Below are positions 1,333 to 64,000 of a DNA stretch of 64,000 bases, piece by piece. Each line of letters starts with the position of its first letter. Position 1 is the stretch's first letter. The position numbers were made by a program, and so were the translations under genes. Source of the DNA: Triatoma infestans (taxonomy: Eukaryota > Arthropoda > Insecta > Hemiptera > Reduviidae); NCBI GenBank assembly GCA_011037195.1, contig JAAEAF010003748.1:53054-117053 (forward strand). Reading direction: 5' to 3'. The notes below the pieces were generated by a model. The model saw nothing but the letters and a program-made list of their open reading frames with translations. It had not been told where the DNA came from and did not search any database.

Positions 1333-2232
1333 AACTCTGCGAGATGCAGTGCAGCGTTAGAGAGAAACAACTCATACTCAAGAAGGCCAGGCCCAGGGCG
1401 TCCAAAGGCCACTCAACTGCGGGACGACCGTTTTTTGACACTGACAGTTTTACGAAATCGTCATCTGACAGCTGTTAAAGTAGTTCATCGCCTCCAAGAA
1501 TTTCGAGATATTCAAATTTCTGAGAGAACAGCTCGGCCCAAAAGAGGCTCCAGAACAAACCATGGAGTACTGAATTTCTCACCTTGAGTTTGCTCGGCAA
1601 TACATCAATTGGTCTATCCAACAAGTGTATTGTTACTGACGAGTCCCGATTTGCCTTAAGGGCTCTGGACTGCCGTGAACGAGTGTGGAGGAGAAGAGGA
1701 GAGAGATTTGCACAATGCAATTTTGTTCTCACTAGGCCTTTCCAACGAGACTCTCTGATGGTTCGGACAGGTATTAGTCTACAGAGACAATTTTCGAAGA
1801 AGTTGGTGATCGTTCGAGGAGGTTCCATGACTGCTGCTCTGTATTTGGCGGATATACTGCAAGTACATGTGGTCCCTATCATACCTGAGATAGGGGAGGA
1901 GTTTGTGCTAATGCACGATATCGCTCGTCCACATACAGCCCACATAGTGTAGGCCTTTCTAAATAACCATAATATTGACTTCCTAAATTGGCGTGCTCAT
2001 TCCCCTGACTTAAATCCTATAGAGCTTCTGTGGGATATGCTTGGAAGACGGATAAAAGATCGAAGAGTCCTTCCTGGGACCTTCAGAAGCTAGAAAGGTT
2101 ACTTCCAGATGAATGGGCTCTAATCTCACTAAAGAAATTTCCGGCTTGATTCAGAGGATGCCGAGACGCCTAGAAGCTGTGATAAAAGCAAAAGGGCTCG
2201 TTATTAGCACCATCCCACTAAAAAAGATGTAA
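1333..2232 (+). pseudogene. Tc1-type transposase, main part
   Basis: The transposase resumes with LRDAVQR, hits a TAG, then continues through RRPGPGRPKATQLRDDRF (linker and second DNA-binding part). After a frameshift near 1580 the catalytic core is readable: VTDESRF with the first aspartate codon at 1638-1640, RERVWRRRGERF, LMHDIARPH with the second aspartate at 1917-1919, an in-frame TAG at 1950-1952, and SPDLNPIELLWDMLGRR with the final acidic residues near 2007-2024. The frame then shifts again and ends with a TAA at 2230. All three catalytic acidic residues are still encoded, but stops and frameshifts make it a pseudogene. It is the 3' part of the copy starting at 107. Confidence 0.85.
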
Positions 2233-7645: not shown

Positions 7646-8715
7646 TGTTTTGAATGTTATCTTTGTGATAAATGTGATCTTACGAAAAATGTAATTTACT
7701 GCAGTGGTCAGTGTAATGTAATAGTACATTTAGAATGTCTAAATATAACACCAAATGAAAAAATATCATTAAAAGAGTGCAAACAGCTTCACTGGCTATG
7801 TACGCTATGTGACAAGGTGGAGGTAAGACCTGCACTACTAATTTAATTAAAAATATGATGACTACGATCTCTTGGCTTCTTGAAGAAGTACGAGATTTGA
7901 AGGGAAAAGTTAGTAATAATATTGACCGAGCGAGTACCTGTGATTGCACATCGCTTATATCAAGTAAGTATAACCTCTGAGATGGTTACTATAACATGTA
8001 ATCAATTAGCTCTAAATAAGGAAATACAAGTGTTAAAGGAAATTAATAAAGTTAATAGTGAAGATAGAGAAGAGAAAGAACGACACTTGTTAAAAGATTT
8101 AAGTAGATTGGATATAGTGACCACACAACGAGGTAATTATAAATCTAAGAAAAATGAACAATTAACTCATAAAGAATCTGATAAGAATCTGTATGAAGAA
8201 TCGTGCATGAATGAAATAACTAGGCAGGTAAGTCCGACTGTGAAATCACAAGAGAATCTTTCACGGAAAGTAGAGCAGAGATGCTGTACTGAGAAGAGAG
8301 GGAGTAGCTATTCTGAAGCAGTTAAATAGGTTGTAACCAATTTGAGAATTGGAGAAGGAGAAGGCTGGAATGTGGTAAAACCTAAAAAAGAACAGAACAG
8401 TGTTCCTAAAACCTAAAAAAGAACAGAAGAATTGTAAAAGTTGGTAGCTGGTAGGTGTAAAGAAAGCCTGGCTACATCTCGGTAAGCTAAAAGAAGGAAC
8501 AACCGTTGAAGATGTCGAACAATTTCTCAAAGAATATATACCTGAGATAGAAGTATCAGTAACCAAATTAACATCAAAGAGAAAAAACTGCAGTTTCAGA
8601 CTCGGAGTAGACTTTCACATGAAAGATAGATTGAGAGAGAGTGATGTATGGCCGCGCAATGTCACCATTAGGCGTTTTTTATTCCCACGACGGGTAGCTG
8701 TGCTACCAAGTTAAA
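7646..8715 (+). pseudogene. Non-LTR retrotransposon ORF1: PHD finger, coiled coil, RRM-like tail
   Basis: From 7655 the frame reads CYLCDKC...CSGQC..VHLECL...HWLCTLC, the Cys4-His-Cys3 spacing of a PHD finger, as found in ORF1 of some insect LINEs. Frameshifts follow, then an acidic/basic helical stretch that looks like a coiled coil (IQVLKEINKVNSEDREEKER, about 8019-8080), and in another frame KKAWLHLGKLKEGTTVEDVE at about 8460. The last matches the C-terminal part of such ORF1 proteins, ending in VTIRRFLFPRRV. ORF1 proteins coat the element RNA. At least two frame breaks are visible. The endonuclease ORF starts directly downstream, in the normal LINE order. Confidence 0.7.
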
Positions 8716-8728
8716 CAGAATAAAAATA

Positions 8729-9420
8729 ATGCACCAGAACGTACAAGGTTTGAGCAATAAGGTACAGCATTTAGAGAAAATTTGTAGAGATAGCGAGATG
8801 GACATAGCATGTTTAACAGAAATTTGGTTAAAAGAAGAACAAATGAATATCTTTGTACCTACAGGCTATAAAGTAGCTTCAGCTTTCTGCAGTACTAAGG
8901 CTATCCATGGTGGTGTTGCAATTTTAGTCAAAGATGGATGTGATATTAAAGTTTTAGATAGAATCAATAGTTTATCCGTTGAAAGAGAGTTTGAACTAAC
9001 TGCAATAGAGACATATAATATGATTATAATTAGTTTATACCGTCCACCTCAGCCTGACTGTGATATATTTATTAAGAATTTAGAGGTTTATTCAATCATA
9101 TTAGCTATTTAGGGAAAAAGGCTGTGTTATTAGGTGACTTTAATATTCAGTTTTTATTAAATAATAAGTTGACTTTAGACTTTTAAGAATTTATGCCTAA
9201 GTTATGGATATGAAATCACAGTTAATGAGTGTACTAGATTGAATGCTTGTTTGGATAATATTGTTACTAATCTAGATGCAAATGAATATAAAGTAAAAGT
9301 AATTAACAATCATATAAGTGACCACTCAGGACAATGGATTTATATTAATAAGCAGCCTGCATCAAAAGCACTATGCGGAAATATTGAAAAAAGAAGAGTA
9401 TTTACTGAAGATGGTATTGC
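8729..9420 (+). pseudogene. Non-LTR retrotransposon ORF2, endonuclease domain
   Basis: The ORF beginning MHQNVQGLSNK contains the apurinic-like endonuclease signatures in order: NVQGL, LTEIWL with the catalytic glutamate, SLYRPP, then after a frame break near 9108 LLGDFNIQF, NACLDNIVTN and ISDHSG with the catalytic Asp-His pair. This enzyme nicks the target to prime reverse transcription. The RT that should follow is absent, because a different element begins near 9430. Confidence 0.85.
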
Positions 9421-32889: not shown

Positions 32890-33957
32890 CATAATTGTTT
32901 TAACTGTAGCTTACGAGAGTCCTTCCTTCTACACACTACCTTATCCTTAAGTCATACCTCTCTGATCGTTACTTCCAAGCGATGGTTGGATCCTCTCTTT
33001 CTCCCTACCAAAGGGTCCAAGCAGGTGTCCCGCAAGGAAGCATGGGTCCCTATCCTTTATACAGTTTACACGGCAGATATTCCGACTAATCCTGAAACCT
33101 TCCTTTCCACCTTGCAGATGATACTGACCCAGTGACATCCCATAGAAATAGTCAGAATCATCTTACTATTTTGGAGAGATGGTTCAAAGTATGGAAAATC
33201 AAATTAAACGAAAGCAAAAATCAACATGTTACCTTTACCCTACGAAGAAATACTTCTCCTCCTCTCTATTACAACCAGTCTTCTGTTCCAGTCTCTGATG
33301 TCGTCCGCTACCTTGGGATGTACATCGGCAAAAGACTTACTTGCAACCCCCACCCACGACTCAAAAGACAAGAAATGAACACTCGCTACAGACAACTAAA
33401 ACGACTCCTAGACAGAAGATCTAGACTGTCACTACACAACAAACGATTAATTTACACTTGACTCATCAAACCCATCTGGACATATGGCATCGAACTGTGG
33501 GGTTCAGCCAAGCGTTCCAACCTCAATCGTATCCAACCACAATCCAAGATCCTTCGAACAACAGTTAACGCTCCTTATTATGTTTCCAATCTAACCATCC
33601 ACAATGATCTAAAAATTCCTTTCCTACCACAAGTAACTAAAGTCAGATATAAGAAATTCCATAGTACCCTATCCTCTAGTCCGACGCCTCTCATACCGCA
33701 CTCTACCCGACAACCCTCCTAGACGGCTTAAACGCCAGTGGCCTCGCGACATCCTCTCTAGTGTGAGTGCTAGTGACAGTGAGTGACAAAGTTGATTGGA
33801 GTGCTACTACTGGGTAGTTTCTCAACTCTGTAATTTTATTTTGTTTATTTTTTTTTTCTTCTTCTTCTTTTTATTGTACATAGATTGTTTACTTAGAATT
33901 TTCATATTTGCTTATGGCACTGTGCTGCCGTTGTAGATATCAAAATAAATAAAAAAA
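32890..33957 (+). pseudogene. Jockey-like retrotransposon 3' half with tail
   Basis: Reads SYLSDRYFQAMVGSSLSPYQ, VQAGVPQGSMG, an altered ADDT box near 33117 (the frame shifts inside it), KQHVTFTLRR-like and VRYLGMYIGKRLTCNPHPRL, KPIWTYGIELWG and ILRTTVNAPYYVSN. These are RT palm, thumb and post-RT blocks. A 3' UTR follows with a C/T-rich stretch and an A-rich end (aaaataaataaaaaaaatg). 5' truncated; several frame breaks, including a TGA after LIYT near 33460. Confidence 0.9.
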
Positions 33958-36199: not shown

Positions 36200-37580
36200 G
36201 GAAAACTAATATGTTGCCTGAGAAAGAGGAATGCCGTGAAGAAGAATTACGGTGGAAACATTTTTGGAAAAAGAAGTTTTGTTTTGTATAAGTAAGTTTA
36301 AGAAAGAAAGAACCCCAGGTGAAGGCGATATAACTAATGAAGCAATTAGGTTAATAACCCCTATTATAATTAAACCCCTAACAATGTTATTTAACAATAC
36401 ATTAGAAATGGAAGAGACACCAAAACAATGGGATAAAATAAATATCATATTGAACGCGAAGGAAAAGAATACCCAAGACTTAAATAATTTTAGGCCAATA
36501 ATTCTACTACCAAACTTTTATAAACTGTTTATGATGGCGTTGAAGAACAGACTAATCATGTTATTAAATGAAAATCAACCGATAGAGCAAGCGGGATTCC
36601 GTAGAGGTTTCTCCACTATCGATCATTTGCAGGCAATAAACCAGATACTTGAAAAAGCAAGAGAGTATAGAATCAATATATATATTGCACTGATTGATTT
36701 TCAAAAAGCGTTTGACAGTGTGTGTCATAGCTGTCTATATGAGACTCTATATAAGCAAAATATATATACTCCCATGCGCTAATTCAAGTGAAAATGGACA
36801 GAATTGACCGGGAATTTGCAATGGAAAGAGGAGTCAGACAAGGGGTCTCCTTATTACCCAATATTTTTAACGCAGTGTAGTACAAGTGTTTAGAGAGCTA
36901 CATTGGGAGCATGTAGGTATAACCCATCAATGGAAAAAATGGAACAATTTGAGGTTTGCCGACCATGTAGTTTTGTTTGCTACTTCAGGGGAAGATTTGA
37001 TGAATATGATGGCGGACCTTCTTAAGCATGCTTCCAAAGCAGGGCTAAGCAGTAATTTCCAAAAAACAAAACTACTGACAAACGGACCTCAAACGGCAAT
37101 AAAGATAAACGGAAAAGAAATCAACTGGGTAAGTGAAGCAGTCTATTTAGGGCAGTTAATTTCTGTTAAAAGTAGAACTACGCAGGAGGTGAACAGAAGA
37201 GTTTCTATCAGTTGGAAGAAGTACTGGTCTCTTAAGCATATCTTCAAAGCTACGTTGAACATGGAGGTAAAGAAGAAGATTTTTGACACATGCAAAGCTC
37301 CAAGTATTCTGTATGGCGCACATACATAGTCTCTAATCAAAAGTACGAACAACGGTTACGCTGCACACAACGGGCTATTTAAAGGAGCCTTCTGGGCATG
37401 AAAAAAATATAGATAGAGTTCGGACCACTGTTATTAGAACAGTATCACACGTATCACAGATGTGGTGACGACAGCAAAAAAAAAAAGAAAGAAATGGAAT
37501 TGGGCTGGCCATCTGGGTAGATTGGATGATGAAACGTGGACACGATCCTGCAAATCTTTTGAGCTGTTGCTATAAAATTG
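36200..37580 (+). pseudogene. RTE-like retrotransposon ORF2, reverse transcriptase to C-terminus
   Basis: One long ORF (36252-36782) reads GEGDITNEAIRL, NNFRPIILLPNFYKLFM, IEQAGFRRGFSTIDHLQAIN and IYIALIDFQKAFDS with the first catalytic aspartate, then breaks. Other frames give MERGVRQGVSLLPN. A second ORF (36886-37329) reads LRFADHVVLFA, where the usual FADD has become FADH, then KTKLLTNG, AVYLGQLIS and ILYGAHT. Near 37500 a WAGHLGRLDDETW block matches the extreme C-terminus of this clade. 5' truncated, without the endonuclease. The lost aspartate means it could not copy even if frames were intact. Confidence 0.88.
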
Positions 37581-42899: not shown

Positions 42900-44171
42900 A
42901 TTAAACTCTTAAGGGTTTAAGTGTTAATGACAAAAAAGAACTAATTATGTTACTATTTGCCGACGTTGTGGTTCTATTCGGGCAGTCTTGGAGTGATACC
43001 GTAAATAAATTGAGAATACTAGATAAATACTGTAGCAATCATTCCATAATTTTAAACCCCGATAAAACGAAAATAATCCCTTTCAGTTCGGCTAGTAGGC
43101 AAAAAAAGTTTAAAGATATATTTTGGCAAGGTAAGCTATTAAATTTTGACAAGCAATACACATACCTGGGAGTACCTTTTAGCTCTTCTGGTAAATTTAG
43201 AAATGCCGCCAAATATTTTGTTGATAGGTCTGTCCCGCAAATCGCAAAAATAATAAATATTTTGGTAAAAAGTAAGTGCAATTCTTGGGACAGTAGAGTG
43301 AAACTTTTTGATTCTATAGCTTCTGCAACTCTCTTGTATGGATCAGAAATTTGGGGTATGAATTACTTAAACGTGGCAGAAAGAGCACAGGTCCGATTTT
43401 TTAAGCAGCTGCTGTGTTGGCCTAAAAACACGCCCGATTATATAGTTAGGCTAGAAACAGGGAGATTACCATTGAGTGTCACTATTTTAAAGAGAATTTT
43501 ACTCTACTAAAAATATTGGCCATGGAAGAAGACAGGATTCCGAAACTCTGCTCCACTGCTTTGAAAAACTGGACTCTTTAAACGAAAGGAATAGAAATTG
43601 GGAAAGAAATTGGTTCACACTGCTACGTCAATGGCTGTATAGTATTGGTGAATTCGACATTATAGGTAGCAATGATTTAAATCATGTCAAAAGCTTAATT
43701 CCAAGTATACTGGAAAAATGGACGAATTATGTCGTCAGTTTAGACATAGAAAGAGCAATCAACTCTAGCTACAGTGCTATCTATAGAAATACAAGTGGGT
43801 TGAGCGTGTCGGAGGACTACCTGAGATATACTTACGCAATAGACAAATTAAGGGTTGTTAGCCAATTAAGGGTATCTAGTAACAAGGTAATTAAAATATG
43901 GTTTAAAAAAGGTGGGAACCATGTGATAAATACGGACTCCATTTGTATCTTGTGCAACTTAAATAAATTAGAAAATCTGGAACACATCCTGATCCAGTGC
44001 CCAATCTATAGCCCGATGAGGAAGCATTATTTCTCACACATATCCCCAACTGAAATTGAATCTGACTTATGTAACAAGTTGCTGACAATACAATCTCTCG
44101 ACCACTTAAATAAGCTGCACTATTTCATTACTGAAGTCCTCAAGTTAAGATCATTCATTATTAATGAATAA
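42900..44171 (+). pseudogene. LINE ORF2: RT palm to C-terminal zinc knuckle
   Basis: The first ORF (42947-43510) starts inside the RT palm with LLFADVVVLFG, where the FADD box has lost one aspartate. It continues ILNPDKTKIIPFSS (thumb), YTYLGVPFS, ATLLYGSEIWG and LLCWPKNTPDYIVRLETG. After one frameshift near 43510 the same protein continues (NERNRNWERNW, 43800 onward) to a C-terminal CILCN...LEHILIQCPIY zinc knuckle (C-x2-C-x~12-H-x4-C) and stops at 44171. It encodes the RT/target-priming protein of a Jockey/I-related element. The 5' part is missing. The 3' end was copied into 30361-31252. Confidence 0.85.
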
Positions 44172-57594: not shown

Positions 57595-57960
57595 TTCAAT
57601 ATATATCACATTGAAATGTTGAATATGTGGATGGGGCCGCAATGCTGGATAACATCTGGTATTTCTTTTATTCCTGCCTGGTTTCCGATTTTCATCAATC
57701 GTCAGAGTAAATTTATCAAGTTCGTGTAGAGAGTTCACTTCAACGCAATGATTCTGTTACACTCGACACTTGTTGGTTTGTTGATAGTATGTTCGTGCGG
57801 GCGGTTATTTACAATATATCATACAACATTGTTACAGTAACATTGCATTGAAGTGCCATTCTCTGCACGAACTTGATAAATTTACATTGACGATAAATGA
57901 AAATCCGAATCCGGTCACGAATAAAAGAAATATGCATGCTACGACGGAAGAAATACCAGA
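57595..57960. repeat. Imperfect inverted repeat with coding-like arms
   Basis: Left core 57662-57732 and right core 57860-57930 are reverse complements with few mismatches. Read outward from the centre, each arm encodes SLHELDKFTLTI followed by (D/N)EN.(K/N)P..NKRN. About 130 bp separate the cores, and weaker matching extends both inward and outward. Confidence 0.75.
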
Positions 57961-58254
57961 CTTTGAAATGTATTGAATGGAAACTTACACTGCCAATATT
58001 GCTGAATAAATCAGAATTAATCTGCAAATAAACTGTATAAGTATAAACAAAATTTGGCCGATTAAAATGCTTCCTTCACTAGCAGAATAATACAATCTGG
58101 TAAATAAAACTGTGAAATATGGAAATATAACAAAAGAAGTACTTATACAATTTTTTTCTCTTGAATTTCTTAAACACTAAAGCTTTATTTGTGATATACA
58201 CAAAATAGAAATGTAATATACACAAGAAATGTTAGTAGAGATTATTTACCGGTT

Positions 58255-58795
58255 CTAGGGCCATTTTTTTTGAGCCCCAGGCACTTATGAATTTACGCCC
58301 GAAGGCAAGGGTCTGGCGCGCGGCTACAAAATTACGATGATTTTTAACCAGGGAAAAAAAATATTTTTGAGCCGCGGGATGGCATACGAGGCTTGCGGCT
58401 ACGTTTTGAAAAATCTAGCTTGAAAACAATCTAAGGTAAAAAGAATATTTGTTAGCCGCGAGATGGGCATGCCTGACCTGCGGCTATGTTTTATAATATT
58501 TAGCTTGAAAATATAAGGTCGAAATTTGTCAGGGAAAAAAAATTTTTTTTGAGCCGGGAGATGGCATCCAAGTCTAGGGCTAATATTTTATAATATTTAG
58601 CTAAAAACATTAAATAAATTATCATTCAATACTATGAATAAAGACTTTGTTTTTTTTTTTATGTATTGTTAATAAGATTCTAAGGACTGTAATATTGTTT
58701 TTGAGCCACGAGATGGCTTCCAAGTCGTGGGGGCAAACATTTTATAATATCTAGCTAAAGACTTTAATATTTTTTGATATTCAATACTTTGTGTA
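58255..58795. repeat. Degenerate tandem repeat with GCCGC/GCGGC hairpins
   Basis: Four to five units each begin with a T-run and gagccgcgrgatggcat-like sequence, continue to a second (t)gcggcta-like block and, in most, ttataatat.tagct. In two units agccgc and gcggct form perfect 6-bp stems about 20 nt apart. Units are about 85-170 bp and lie just past the 3' end of the virus-like gene block, where its terminal repeat would be expected. Confidence 0.7.
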
Positions 58796-58977
58796 TTTTT
58801 ATGTATTTAATTCTGTTGTCAATAAGGTAGTCATAATAAAACAATTATTTCAAAAAGAAAACTTGTTTATTTTATGTTTATCTTACAAATCAGTTCTATA
58901 TAAATTATTTATTGTTCTTTATCAGTTCTTTATAACATTATAGGTGAAAAAAAAGGCAGAATGGCATATTATAAGTT

Positions 58978-58983
58978 TTTATT
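58978..58983 (-). promoter_or_regulatory. Polyadenylation signal AATAAA
   Basis: An AATAAA on the minus strand about 110 nt after the stop of the 205-aa ORF, followed by more A/T-rich sequence; a plausible 3' end for the transcript of the block. Confidence 0.5.
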
Positions 58984-59091
58984 TTCTATGATTATTTAAT
59001 ACATTTTTCACTATTCTATTTTACAAGACATAATTCTTTTTAGCATAATTTTAGTAATCTATTTACAAAAGACAAAAACATAATCTAATAT

Positions 59092-59709
59092 TTACATTAT
59101 CTCATCACATAAGAGTTTTTCCACACCAAATAATGAGCATGTAATACAATTGAAACACCAGAAAAAAGGATCATATATCAAATCGAAAAGAAGATTAGTG
59201 TTGTTAGTGTGAACAGTAGTACGTTGACATGTCCAAATTAATCCTTTAGGAGTGCTTGGCTGGAGCAAATTGCAACATTTGGCACAAAAATTGTAATAAG
59301 AATTGGTATCATTGTATAGTTCGTCAATGTTATTATGGGAAAGAATGTTAATTTTTTTAAAGTAATACAGTTCAATAGTAATTGTGAATGTTTTAAAGTG
59401 CTGCAATAATAAGGATCTGCTATCTGGGTCGCAATACAATATGGCAATGCAATCTGATAGAGGCATTGGTTGACCAACAATAAATTCAATATTTTCAAAA
59501 CAATACAAATCTATATTACATTTTTTATAAGTAGTTATACAATAATCAGAGAATGCATGAAATAATTTAAGCTGAACAGTTTTCGGTATATCAAGTAGGA
59601 AAATATCAGATCTCCTAGGTAAATTTAAACAGATGTTGATCATGCATAGGTCCAAAAGTGAGAATGGTTGAAAATACTTCTCGTCAATAGTGTAGTGTAG
59701 AGTGTGCAT
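59092..59709 (-). CDS. 205-aa cysteine-containing protein downstream of the polymerase
   Basis: An intact ORF starting with an ATG two bases after the polymerase TAA and running 205 codons to a TAA at 59092. I do not recognise the protein with confidence. The first ~60 residues are leucine-rich (FSLLDLCMINICLNLP, then IPKTVQLKLFHAF), a pattern faintly like short F-box/SOCS-type helices. The C-terminal third has paired cysteines (CAKCC, WTC, CFNCITC) that could bind zinc. No signal peptide or convincing membrane helix is seen. The tight stop-start spacing suggests it is an element gene, expressed by reinitiation or from a separate transcript. It is the only long gene of the block without a visible break. 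Confidence 0.6.
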   Translation of the reverse strand: MHTLHYTIDEKYFQPFSLLDLCMINICLNLPRRSDIFLLDIPKTVQLKLFHAFSDYCITTYKKCNIDLYCFENIEFIVGQPMPLSDCIAILYCDPDSRSLLLQHFKTFTITIELYYFKKINILSHNNIDELYNDTNSYYNFCAKCCNLLQPSTPKGLIWTCQRTTVHTNNTNLLFDLIYDPFFWCFNCITCSLFGVEKLLCDEIM

Positions 59710-59711
59710 AG

Positions 59712-62700
59712 TTATTTGTTGAGTTGATAGTGTCCGTATGGTAAAGTGTGAATTCCGTCATCTAGAATGAAACGTTTTTGATCAAAACACGTCAAACTTG
59801 TTTTACTACATTCATATGTGTATAAGTGGTGTCGTTTGGATTGAATAGTTTTGAAATGTGAATGTAATACAAGGTCTTGGCTTTTTGAAACATTTAGATA
59901 ATCAGAAAATGATATTCTATTCACAGCGCTTTTTTTAACACTTTTTGCCTTTTTAACGATGTGTTTGTTGAAAATGTTGAAGCTATACATTTTAGGTCTT
60001 AATGCCACCAACTCTTGAATAGGAACTCCGGCAGTTTCATCGCTAAATTTACCCAACACTTTCTCATTGTGGTTTGAATAGCATTTGTGCGTAACAGGGT
60101 AGTTGGAAGTGTCAAAATAGTCTTTCAATTCAATCATGTCATCGTATACATCGTCTGTTTGAATATTATATATAAAAGAGTCAGTGTCCATGTATAGCAA
60201 ATTCAGGGAAGTATGATTATAAAATGGTAACATAACCTCGTAGTGAAATTGATACATGTACCGTTTGCTGAGTTCCAAAATCGAAAATCCCACGTAAGTA
60301 GGTCTGTCCAGATATATTGTTTCCTGTTGTAAGTGTACTGCAACAACGTTTTCACTAAAAATTGTCCTGTCTTTAAAGTTTGGTCTTTTGGATAATTTTA
60401 ATAATGCTTTTTCCGTGGTGACAAGTTTGATGGTCAATCGTTTCCTCTTATTTTCAATACACTTTCCAAAAACAGAGTTGTTCATTAATTTGTAAAAGTC
60501 CTTTTCAAAATCGTTTTTAGCCGTCTTGCGTAAGTTAGTATTCAGTTCTATGTAAGGTTTAAGCCAGAGGGATTGTTTAAATTTTAATATTCTATGCACT
60601 TTTTTCAAAACAACACCCATCGACAGAGCTTGTTTCAAATTTTTGTAATGAATCACATAATGTTGTTTATCCTCAAGCGTAGTATAGAGCTTATTATTGT
60701 GATGATGTGGCAGTGGTGGAAACTGACTGAAATGATTGTGTAAGCGGGTTGGTATGTGCAAATCAACCTCTAGAATAAAACCATCATCGCTATCATCAGG
60801 AACTGTGGTAACATCCACACTATTGTCCACCCATTCAAAACCACCATAAGGAAGATATTCACTCATTGCAAACCTATATAGATTATTTACATCTATATAT
60901 AAAATATAGTTAGATGGTTGTGTGGGATCGTAACCACTTATGTATGGGTTATTGGCTTTGGAATGTCTTGTAACACACGAAGTGATACCTCCACGAGTAC
61001 CTGATTCAATCATAAGATGTTTATCATAATCAGTCAATAGTTCCAATTTTACTTGCGTATATTTTAAACAGGCGTCAAATGCCAACCCAGGCGTTGTGAA
61101 ATACCAACTCGGATCAATGCTGTAAATGGATTCACACACATTTCTAAACTGTTCAAATATGTCACTTAAAAGAATTATGTCTGTTGTTAAATACAATTCT
61201 GTGTAATCTCTTAAGTGTTTGTATATTGAAAGCGGTCCAGACTTGTTGAGCGTGTAAATAATCATTATCGGATATGTGCTCATCGGTTAAATCATTAAAA
61301 AAATATTTTTTAGCTGGTAAGGAACGTTCATCTAATTTTTCCATACTTGTCATGTAGGCGTATGGGTAAATACCCTTTCTAAGTAGTAATTTTCGTTCAT
61401 CATAATTTGGAAATTGTTGTTCCATTTGTGGGTATTCAGTCAAGTTATTTATTAGTCGTTCTAAACTGTCTGGTAAAAACCTATAAGAATCTAAAAATCG
61501 CGTACAATCGCTAAATTTTTTCGAAAAACTTATATATTTCTCAGTTGAATTCGGTATTACCCATATGTCGCCTGGATCCTGTCCCAAAGATAATATAATA
61601 GGATGAGCATCATACCCGCTAAGATTATGCATGTAGACTGGTATGAAATTGGGTAATTGAAAATTTAAATTACAATCATTATGTGCAGCACACTGAAATT
61701 CCCCTGTAAGATGATCATGATGATGAACTTTTTTGTCTAAATTGTTAAACGGTTGGTCGCAAATACCACAATGAGTGGCATTGTCAAAGTCATGTTGTTG
61801 TTGTGGTGATAGATCTGTCATTGGAATAATCTCCTTATATAAGGTTTCCACGTCTTTAACAATGGAATGTAAATACTGCATAAATTGTTCGAGCGCATCG
61901 TCCCCAGTATAAATGAAAATGTCTTTTTGATAATTTGATAGTGAAGAGACAACTTTAGCCCCAACACTACAAATTTCATGCTTGTGTGTTTGTCTAGACC
62001 ATGATGTTGATGGACTACCGGGTGCATTGTGTACGGGTAAAAGTATAGATTCAAAATCAGCATAGATAACTATTGGTACGTGTTGTTTATGTTGAAAGTT
62101 TGTAAACTGTAAATATGTGTTGTCTGAAGGCATTTGAATGCGACAAGGTTTTTGTTTATTGCAAAATAATTGATGGTCTGTTAATCGTTCCTCAGCCGTT
62201 TTCCCATCTATCGATGTATAGGTGTGGGTAAATGTTTTAAAACATCGTTTACATATAACAGCGCCGCGATGATGTCTACTAAGTTGTGAAGAAACAAGTC
62301 TGGATAAATTTTTTATTAAACAATAATGAGAAGTATTTTCGTTTCTTAAATATAACAAGTCAAAATGTTCTACAGACTTTTCATTTGAACTTATCATTAG
62401 AGGATACACCTGATTTTCCTCGGTTTAAGAATAAACATTTATCGATACATTATTATTTTTTCAAATTTTCGTATATCTTTTAATGGTGTGGGAAAGGAAA
62501 TATTGTCAAAAGTGTAACGATGGTTTAATTTTTTATACGCCGATAATGAACGCGGCTTCTTTAACTGTCGGCTTAAAATGGCATATTTAAAGCTAAAATC
62601 ATCAGTATTATTAATGTTAATGACTGCCCGTTTATCTGCTATTTCCTTTGGTAAAGGGATGTAACCTCTTCCACCTAAAGGACGATATTTAGTTATTCTA

Positions 62701-63351
62701 ATGACAATGTTATCAATAGAATCCACTTTCCAGTTTGATCCGCTAGTTTCAAATTCTTCAATTTCGCTCACAAGTTTTGCAAAAACTCTTCGGAGCTAGT
62801 GAATTAAATTGCACCTAGCGTCAATAACTTCTATGGAAGTTTTGAAATTGGCATCGGTAAACTGTTCAAGATCAGAATTCCTATACCGACTGTAAACACA
62901 TTCCAATAAGATGGATGATTTGAAAACTAGTAACTCTTCTTTAGCTTTACTCAACAACCGTAGAAGTATGTTGTGTTTCTCTTGTAGAAATAGCAACGGG
63001 TCTTTTATATTGTCAACATTTTTTATACAAATATTTTGGGCTGATTTATTTAATGCCGTAACTACTATGCCAACTTGTAGAGGAACCGATAACATACGAT
63101 ATTTCTTTTTATTCAACACTTTCTTGTCATTGTATCATAATGTGTGAAGAAGAATGAGGTGTGTTTTGGCAAGTATGTTTTAGAAAGATGGATTTTTTGT
63201 CAAATACTATGTTGCAATCCTCGCATTTAATACAAAACGAGGAGATGTGTATTAAGAATTTCACCAATTTGCGGAATATAATGCCACAGTAAGGACATGT
63301 TTTTTGTAAGCATGTTAAAGCATGCCTCCTTAAATTATATGGTTTGGAAAT
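59712..63351 (-). pseudogene. Protein-primed family B DNA polymerase (Polinton/adintovirus-like), frame-broken
   Basis: Replicative polymerase of an endogenous virus-like element. Order on the minus strand: C2H2-like zinc fingers (63310-63140); an N-terminal domain (63119-62796, 62771-62439) ending in KYRPLGGRGYIPLPKEIADK; a Cys-rich finger with CKRC; ExoI YADFES (62058-62041); an EndoVII-like zinc module CGIC...HHDHLTGEFQCAAHNDCN (about 61770-61660); ExoII HNLSGYDAH; DSYRFLPDSLERL; ExoIII YLTTDIILLSDIF; TP-binding-type SGTRGG; motif A LYIDVNNLY; motif B FYKLMNNSVFGK; motif C YMDTDS; and the C-terminal HTLPYGHYQ. All metal-binding acidic residues are kept. Breaks: a frame change near 63127, TAG at 62798-62796, a frameshift at the T6 run 62456-62461, TAA at 62427-62425, a frameshift near 61225. 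No in-frame ATG is found for the zinc-finger part. Size otherwise fits the family. Confidence 0.92.
63130..63351 (-). other. N-terminal zinc-finger segment of the polymerase, in its own frame
   Basis: Reads KPYNLRRHALTC, CPYCGIIFRKLVKFLIH, CIKCEDCNIVF...FLKHTC, then HSSSHIMIQ and a TGA at 63129-63127. This is the spacing of C2H2 fingers commonly fused to these polymerases. The frame is continuous with the stop of the small upstream gene (63352-63354) and has no ATG, so a start may come from splicing (a ttaag at about 63331 could be an acceptor) or have been lost. Confidence 0.6.
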
Positions 63352-63789
63352 TTAATCTTGGTCCGTTTGTGACTTTTTAGCCTTCTTGCTTCTGGAAGGT
63401 CCCCCTTGTTTATGTGATGTGGTAAATTCTATATTGTTATAGTTGCCCCTGGCTCCTTTATATATTAAAGCAAGATCACCATCTTAAAATAAAAACTAAA
63501 ATATATTACATGCTAAGGGGGAAAATAGAAAAAAATATTTTTTCTACATACCTTCATAGACACGAATATCATCATCGCTCAACGCTTCTACAAATCTTTT
63601 AGGAAGGAACACTCTTATTAGAATTTCTTGGTCATGGAGCACTGCTGTCAGACCAGGACCAAACTTTGTATGTTCCACCTTCTTAAACGCTGCAATTGGA
63701 TATGATTTGTTCTCTTCCAAATCGCCAATACGTTTATAAGTAATGGATGGTGATCGTTCCAACAGCTTCTTCAAAATATTTGTAGACAT
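63352..63789 (-). CDS. Small two-exon gene, ssDNA-binding/OB-like protein of polymerase elements
   Basis: Exon 1 is 63789-63552 (ATG in aataATG context), exon 2 is 63482-63352. Joined they give 122 codons. Exon 1 contains IGDLEENKSYPIAAF, a VEHTKFGPGLTAVL block, VFLPKRFVEAL and SDDDIRVYE. KFGP and FLPKRF are hallmarks of a small protein I recall beside protein-primed polymerases in arthropod elements. A single-strand-DNA-binding (OB-fold) role is likely but inferred. Exon 2 continues with LALIYKG, as family members do, and ends in a Lys/Ser-rich basic tail (SRSKKAKKSQ). Without splicing the frame stops two codons after VYE. It lies directly upstream of the polymerase. A tttcag at about 63804-63809 might be a 5' UTR splice acceptor. 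Confidence 0.7.
63483..63551 (-). other. 69-nt GT-AG intron of the small gene
   Basis: Donor AAG/GTATGT at 63551 and acceptor after a T-rich run (tttttattttaag) at 63483. Phase 1; removing it joins two frames that each match the expected protein. Its size and A/T-rich content fit insect introns. Confidence 0.75.
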
Positions 63790-63846
63790 TATTTTGGGGG
63801 GGAGGCTGAAATGTAGTTATAAATTTCTTCATAGTTACAGTTTGTA

Positions 63847-63926
63847 CATGCAAAAACAAAAAAATCCATCATATTATGCACCTGCCCATGTAAAAACAAA
63901 AAAATCCATCATCCTATGCACCTGCC
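63847..63926. repeat. 40-bp tandem duplication upstream of the small gene
   Basis: Units 63847-63886 and 63887-63926 both read catg.aaaaacaaaaaaat then ccatcat..tatgcacctgcc, with three differences. It lies about 60 bp upstream of the start codon at 63789. Confidence 0.9.
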
Positions 63927-64000
63927 TGATTGTACCGCATCCAGCGACCGCAAAGCGGATTCGGGAACTATTCTTAGCCTACTGGTGCACCTTTTTATCG
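63927..64000. other. Window edge, presumably inside the same element
   Basis: GC-richer sequence without an ORF. No terminal repeat matching the 58.3-58.8 kb block is seen here, so the element should continue to the right. Confidence 0.4.

What the first reader, a model, noticed from the sequence alone, without database searches (positions are those of the whole stretch)
58255..64000. Virus-like polymerase block: one end of an endogenous Polinton/adintovirus-like element
Seen: a small KFGP/FLPKRF gene, a protein-primed PolB with ExoI-III, an EndoVII-like module and motifs A-C, a 205-aa ORF, a polyA signal and terminal-looking repeats, all on the minus strand in about 5.5 kb. Known: Polintons/Mavericks and adintoviruses often carry PolB near one end. 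Inference: 58.26 kb is the left end of such an element and the integrase/capsid genes lie beyond 64 kb. It could instead be a reduced element that keeps only the replication genes, which would be more unusual.
Basis: partly seen in the sequence, partly recalled or inferred. Interest (0 to 1): 0.9.

Follow-up and report, generated by a model that had tools for sequence, protein, structure and literature searches.

The report
One end of an insect-type Maverick/Polinton
The stretch is one end of a virus-like mobile DNA element (a Maverick/Polinton) that is present in many copies in this animal genome; the rest of the element, with capsid and integrase genes, can be read in sister copies, so it is a known kind of thing with a few unusual accessory genes.

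Summary
The window's contig ends at base 64000, inside the element, so I read sister copies in the same genome. Five of six sister copies read there carry an inverted copy of window 58.23-58.91 kb at the far end; the sixth is truncated. Five of seven two-ended copies have perfect 6-bp target duplications and span about 15.5-16.7 kb. Sister copies encode an rve integrase, a double-jelly-roll capsid protein, an A32-like ATPase, a PLA2-domain protein, an adenain-like protease (weak match), a probable penton, KFGP and PolB: the gene set of insect Mavericks. The reduced-element alternative is not supported. Corrections: the end is 58234, not 58255; PolB is broken by small indels here; the EndoVII module is not significant by Pfam in the window. 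The seven best-matching copies differ by 4-22 of 1,497 PolB bases, pointing to recent spread, though paired terminal repeats are mostly only 85-97% alike. Unexpected: the far end carries a BIR (inhibitor-of-apoptosis type) gene in 11 of 13 far-end stretches, and a sister PolB starts with C2H2 zinc fingers. New member of a known kind, with a possibly new accessory gene.

The parts
58228..58233 (.). host 6-mer flanking the element end, presumed target site duplication (AATGTT)
   Evidence: 5 of 7 two-ended sister copies have perfect 6-bp duplications at this position; for the window only one end is in its contig
58234..58913 (.). terminal inverted repeat, outer end 5'-AGTAGA
   Evidence: inverted copies at the far end of 5 of 6 fetched sister copies, alignments reaching window 58913 in these five; terminus
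58350..58807 (.). subterminal array of diverged units about 85-150 bp apart, with an imperfect AGCC...GGCT dyad
   Evidence: 2-7 units in each of 24 arms scanned
59092..59709 (-). 205-aa ORF, function unknown, CxxC pairs near its C-terminus
   Evidence: present at 91-94% aa in 6 of 6 sister copies, 5 of 6 without a stop in the aligned part; no Pfam or PHROGs match
59712..61283 (-). PolB, C-terminal piece: last exonuclease motif (by eye) and palm motifs A-C
61162..62409 (-). PolB, middle piece: exonuclease motifs (by eye) and EndoVII-like Cys/His module
   Evidence: phrog_1907 DNA polymerase E 6.5e-4; PF02945 only E 9.5
62439..62771 (-). PolB, N-terminal half, piece
   Evidence: same residues inside one frame of a sister copy
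62796..63119 (-). PolB, N-terminal half, piece
63120..63350 (-). remnant of the C2H2 zinc-finger N-terminus of PolB; the start of sister frames falls in a stretch of about 59 bp absent here
63544..63789 (-). KFGP/FLPKRF small protein, 81 aa; possible OB-fold-like DNA-binding protein (inference)
   Evidence: in 5 of 6 sister copies; weak model, pLDDT 61
63847..63926 (.). two copies of a 40-bp tandem repeat between the KFGP gene and the contig end

Best explanation
The region is the PolB-side end of a decayed copy of a Maverick/Polinton: an endogenous, self-replicating virus-like element about 16 kb long with inverted terminal repeats of roughly 0.7 kb or more. By the established model for this group (recalled), protein-primed PolB copies the element from its ends, the retrovirus-type integrase inserts it and makes a 6-bp target duplication, and capsid protein, penton, protease and ATPase would build and fill a particle. 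Shown here: ends, duplications, gene content, multiple copies, close similarity of copies. Inferred: the replication mechanism, particle formation, and that the KFGP protein helps DNA replication. As assembled, this window copy cannot make an intact PolB.
For: Inverted terminal copies about 16 kb apart in 5 of 6 fetched copies. Perfect 6-bp TSD in 5 of 7 two-ended copies against 1 of 113 unpaired end pairs, and that one pair is the window with C7210, whose end subtype and break point also fit the other half of the same insertion. Pfam in sister copies: rve 3.7e-15, DJR-like_dom 1e-97, Pox_A32 4.8e-7, Phospholip_A2_4 1.8e-12. Capsid protein: 111 matched stretches, 87 at 76-100% and 24 at 46-48% identity; PolB: 92 stretches; both are lower bounds, since only the best candidates were scored. 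Gene set as in Sf Maverick 1 of PMC5803895 (section 11 part 1 and passages). End motif and 6-bp TSD as for vertebrate Mavericks in PMC8097293 (passages).
Against: The window copy ends with its contig, so its own integrase and capsid genes were not seen. Two of seven two-ended copies (C12724, C12769) lack matching duplications; their two ends are of different subtypes, so they may be recombinant or misassembled (inference). Pfam did not call PolB in the window pieces. The protease match is below Pfam's cut-off (E 0.05). PDB gave no sequence match for the capsid protein or the PolB profile. Mismatches and gaps rise towards 64000, so part of the window's damage could be error near a contig end.
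Confidence: 0.97

Rival explanations
1. A reduced element that keeps only the replication genes (PolB, KFGP, ORF205) between inverted repeats, moving by help of full elements.
For: The window shows only replication-side genes. C845 is a sister copy whose homology to the window stops at window position 63128; the next stretch fetched there holds no integrase or capsid match.
Against: None of the 7 two-ended copies examined is of that size: they span about 15.5-21 kb (and coordinates). The five read inside hold capsid and integrase genes, some of them broken; for the other two (C172, C5295) capsid matches lie inside. C845 shows one end only and looks like a truncation.
Confidence: 0.02
2. A linear-plasmid-like or bidnavirus-like PolB element rather than a Maverick.
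For: The PolB family is shared with bidnaviruses (PMC4061559, passages); a PLA2-like domain of the kind known from parvovirus capsids is present.
Against: rve integrase, double-jelly-roll capsid, A32-like ATPase, TIR and TSD in sister copies; no helicase or single-jelly-roll capsid family among the proteins given to Pfam, which were not all ORFs.
Confidence: 0.01

Closest known systems
Sf Maverick 1 and 2 of Spodoptera frugiperda cells (PMC5803895; read: section 11 part 1 of 2, and passages)
   Same: ATP, ORF2, INT, PLA2-containing protein, PRO, ORF6, ORF7 of 404 aa, ORF8 and PolB of 1,162 aa; PolB on the same strand as in Sf Maverick 1; two lineages about 50% alike in one genome.
   Different: Here also a BIR gene and a 127-aa ORF at the far end, an antisense 179-aa ORF, ORF205 at the PolB end, C2H2 fingers at the PolB N-terminus. 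Sizes differ (KFGP 81 aa, ORF8 158 aa). The sequences were not compared; the match rests on domains, sizes and order, the order in the paper being taken from its ORF numbers.
Vertebrate Mavericks (PMC8097293; passages only)
   Same: TIRs, 6-bp TSD, AGT-type ends (two copies here begin AGTAGT, most AGTAGA), capsid, protease, ATPase, integrase, PolB.
   Different: PLA2 and BIR proteins not mentioned in the passages seen; gene order not compared.
Adintoviruses (PMC11071296; passages only)
   Same: PolB, rve integrase, hexon-type capsid protein, probable penton in an animal-associated element.
   Different: [quoted passage not shown] Pfam called neither here.

Membership tests
Maverick/Polinton | long terminal inverted repeats | tested here: met
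   in sister copies; the window holds one arm
Maverick/Polinton | 6-bp target site duplication | tested here: met
   5 of 7 two-ended copies; control 1 of 113 unpaired end pairs. For the window's own insertion inconclusive (its 6-mer matches C7210)
[quoted passage not shown]
   (family and motifs; priming itself not testable); window copy broken
Maverick/Polinton | retrovirus-type (rve) integrase | tested here: met
   E 3.7e-15, in a sister copy; 5 of 6 sister copies match it
Maverick/Polinton | A32-like packaging ATPase | tested here: met
   Pox_A32 E 4.8e-7, above the curated cut-off, in a sister copy
Maverick/Polinton | adenain-like cysteine protease | tested here: inconclusive
   Peptidase_C5 E 0.05, below cut-off; E 0.094 to cysteine protease S273R (that it is a related viral protease is recalled)
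Maverick/Polinton | double-jelly-roll major capsid protein | tested here: met
   PF21738 E 1e-97, in a sister copy
Maverick/Polinton | penton (minor capsid protein) | tested here: inconclusive
   234-aa ORF next to the capsid gene; no Pfam match; assignment by position and recalled resemblance
Adintovirus (PMC11071296 definition) | OTU-like domain at the PolB N-terminus | tested here: not met
   zf-C2H2 E 6.2e-7 and no OTU family at E<=10 in an 809-aa N-terminal piece of one sister PolB; a domain too diverged for Pfam is not excluded
Adintovirus (PMC11071296 definition) | integrase with C-terminal chromodomain | tested here: inconclusive
   no match; the sequence looks chromodomain-like by eye
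Adintovirus (PMC11071296 definition) | hexon reciprocally recognisable by BLASTP | not testable with these tools
   no named adintovirus reference sequences at hand
Bidnavirus | parvovirus-type helicase and single-jelly-roll capsid with PolB | tested here: not met
   no such family among the proteins scanned, and a double-jelly-roll capsid instead

The most novel reading that the evidence does not exclude
A recently spread Maverick lineage carries its own inhibitor-of-apoptosis-type (BIR) gene beside the terminal repeat opposite PolB, as baculoviruses carry theirs. Its conservation across copies would mean the element behaves as a virus that must keep its cell alive, supporting the view that insect Mavericks still pass through an infectious stage.
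Probability: 0.35. Interest if true: 0.6.

Novelty: new member of a known kind. Interest (0 to 1): 0.35.

Why it matters
Mavericks are thought to be integrated viruses, yet virions of Mavericks had not been observed according to PMC8097293 (abstract as listed). A genome with many closely similar copies, several with long open frames, plus a gene of the kind that some viruses use against host cell death, is a good natural place to ask whether such an element still makes particles. Otherwise this is an ordinary, well-formed member of a known group.

Tried and rejected
Rejected: reduced replication-only element; bidnavirus or linear plasmid; chance ORFs. Did not work: viral contigs with the single PolB piece gave 19 pattern matches and no relative; with the 20-sequence alignment 2 of 89 matched stretches were relatives, 39-42% identical, one with an integrase-like and one with a penton-like ORF next to PolB by eye. 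The KFGP model was too weak to search (pLDDT 61). The BIR ORF had 53 candidates and none at E<=1e-3. The capsid protein, the PolB profile and the integrase C-terminus had no PDB relative at the thresholds used. Counting terminal repeats and finding a host marker (PF00115) in the whole genome never ran: the machine was busy at every try; the PolB search failed so twice before it was answered. The dyad in the subterminal units is weak: stems of 5 or more pairs in 66 of 98 unit occurrences against about 10% in shuffled controls, but the units are related by descent; a first pattern matched nothing. In four stretches fetched for an element end (L028, L031, L033, L041) the end was not found and they dropped out of the end count. 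The window's first 58 kb against nine of the sister loci showed only repeats that lie in those loci's host flanks. No tree was built.

Full report
OBSERVATION. The polymerase is real: the 523-aa piece 59712-61283 matched 7,054 of 7,992 scored candidates at E<=1e-3 (the search scored only the candidates sharing most words); the 120 listed are 44-55% identical, named ones among them from spider, damselfly, soft coral, mayfly and ants. In an alignment with 19 of them the palm motifs fall on invariant columns. Pfam does not call the window pieces as PolB, and the EndoVII-like module is insignificant there (E 9.5), although some relatives carry PF02945 or PF03175.

THE CONTIG ENDS AT THE WINDOW. 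The genome is held: 941 Mb in 13,959 contigs; the window is C3624:53054-117053, and 117053 is the contig's last base. What lies to the right can therefore be tested only in sister copies. The PolB piece has 92 matched stretches, 82 of 2,077 first-look candidates having been scored; 18 long ones at 52-54% identity form a second subfamily, and the others are mostly much closer, many at 92-98%, several being fragments.

ENDS. Six sister copies were fetched in pieces. The terminal region of the window recurs inverted at the far end of five; the sixth, C845, is truncated. Twenty-four ends could be lined up by a shared core; four further stretches showed none. In 22 of the 24 the element starts at 5'-AGTAG or a close variant (AGTAGT in C172 and C8170), which is window 58234; in two (C1296, C12966) no terminus was recognised. 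Of seven copies with both ends seen, five have perfect 6-bp target duplications (C13042, C13079, C172, C2929, C5295); two do not (C12724, C12769), and their ends are of different subtypes. Among 113 unpaired far/PolB end pairs one matched: the window with the far end of contig C7210, which has nearly the same end sequence and breaks off about 155 bp from where the window breaks off, the 160-bp overlap being 89% identical. I read C7210 as the probable other half of the window's insertion; the imperfect overlap speaks against it or reflects poor contig ends. It was not joined. The five TSD-bounded copies span about 15.5-16.7 kb (three printed, two worked out from coordinates); C12769 spans 21 kb.

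GENES. From the far end to the PolB end, sister copies encode: 127-aa ORF and 244-aa BIR ORF (on the other strand), ATPase, charged and small ORFs, integrase, antisense 179-aa ORF, PLA2-domain protein, protease, 234-aa probable penton, 405-aa capsid protein, KFGP, PolB (open frames of up to 1,246 aa), ORF205. Pfam: rve 3.7e-15, Pox_A32 4.8e-7, PF21738 double jelly roll 1e-97, PF08398 PLA2-like 1.8e-12, BIR 4.3e-9; Peptidase_C5 only 0.05. A sister PolB begins with C2H2 zinc fingers (E 6.2e-7), and no OTU domain was called. ORF205 is present in 6 of 6 sister copies (one with a stop), KFGP, integrase, protease, penton and capsid genes in 5 of 6, some broken; C845 lacks them. This is the composition of insect Mavericks: Sf Maverick 1 has eight small ORFs (ATP, ORF2, INT, CAP with PLA2, PRO, ORF6, ORF7 of 404 aa, ORF8) and PolB on the same strand (PMC5803895, section 11 part 1); sequences were not compared.

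AGE AND STATE. The seven best-matching sister copies (loci L002-L008) differ from each other by 4-22 bases in 1,497 of PolB, and from the window by 26-34, with a mild excess at third codon positions. Nine of 111 capsid matches are printed as 100% identical (rounded) to the query, the query's own locus included. Paired TIRs of C13042 are 99.0% identical over 608 bp; the best segments of the other six copies are 85-97% alike, with repeat units that vary in number and blur the comparison. I read this as recent spread while the window copy decays; the TIR differences are the weaker side of that reading. In the window PolB carries three frame-shifting indels, a 9-bp in-frame loss and a loss of about 59 bp over the sister start. 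Mismatch and gap density rises towards the contig end, so some of this may be assembly error. Copies with open frames for several genes exist in the genome; none is singled out.

BIR GENE. The far-end ORF has the zinc signature C-x2-C-x16-H-x6-C (that this is the BIR signature is recalled), Pfam BIR E 4.3e-9 and 8.1e-11 in two copies, and PDB matches to XIAP BIR domains, best E 4.7e-5. It is found in 11 of 13 far-end stretches, the query's included; of the other two, L037 ends within or just past the TIR and L041 showed no element end. Against conservation: of the 10 found besides the query, three aligned stretches contain a stop, one copy is split into three frames, and the signature is intact in the aligned part of 8 (some stretches cut the ORF). 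No relative at E<=1e-3 was found in the large protein set. Library searches: BIR domain with Polinton (0 papers); inhibitor of apoptosis with adintovirus; Maverick, inhibitor of apoptosis, transposable element and insect (listing only, by title unrelated); three of inhibitor of apoptosis, Polinton, Maverick, BIR (75 papers, 12 listed, passages of PMC8905726 seen for these terms, no such gene); Maverick, BIR and others (2 listed, not opened); IAP with Polinton (7 papers, 6 listed, passages of PMC4061559 and PMC11089739 seen, no such gene). None reported a BIR gene in a Maverick in what I saw. The library lacks most subscription journals, and most listed papers were not opened, so this is no proof of novelty.

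MECHANISM. Shown: ends, duplications, gene set, copies. From established knowledge of the group (recalled; in part PMC4061559 and PMC8097293, passages): protein-primed replication from the TIRs by PolB and insertion by the integrase. Inferred: KFGP as a DNA-binding helper (its strand pattern suggests an OB-like fold, but the model is weak); the BIR protein as a cell-death inhibitor.

VERDICT. A Maverick/Polinton, supported as predicted. One part of the adintovirus definition of PMC11071296 (OTU domain) was tested and not met, so I file it as a Maverick of the insect type and not as an adintovirus.

Noticed in passing
L014:1004-1738 (+), L024:8802-9242 (-) and other far-end stretches: BIR-domain (inhibitor-of-apoptosis type) ORF beside the terminal repeat opposite PolB, found in 11 of 13 far-end stretches; no relative in the large protein set.
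   Followed up: partly
genome G000, e.g. C13435 (PolB 54%) and C12527 (capsid 48%): At least one further Maverick-like subfamily in the same genome, with long open PolB and capsid frames; whether the two belong together was not tested.
   Followed up: no
G000 contig C7210, far end (L040) and contig end (L043): Its flanking 6-mer, end subtype and break point match the window's element end; probably the other half of the same insertion, separated by the assembly.
   Followed up: partly
57660-57732 and 57860-57932: A 73-nt inverted repeat (86% complementary, 127 nt apart) just outside the element, MITE-like; part of it is similar to a piece of L020.
   Followed up: no
8672-9112, 33096-33461, 36240-37329, 42905-44171 (+): Fragments of retrotransposons by Pfam (endonuclease and reverse transcriptase domains, several below the curated cut-off).
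   Followed up: partly
1475-1996 (both strands): Open frames that recall a mariner-type transposase by eye; no Pfam match at E<=0.01.
   Followed up: partly
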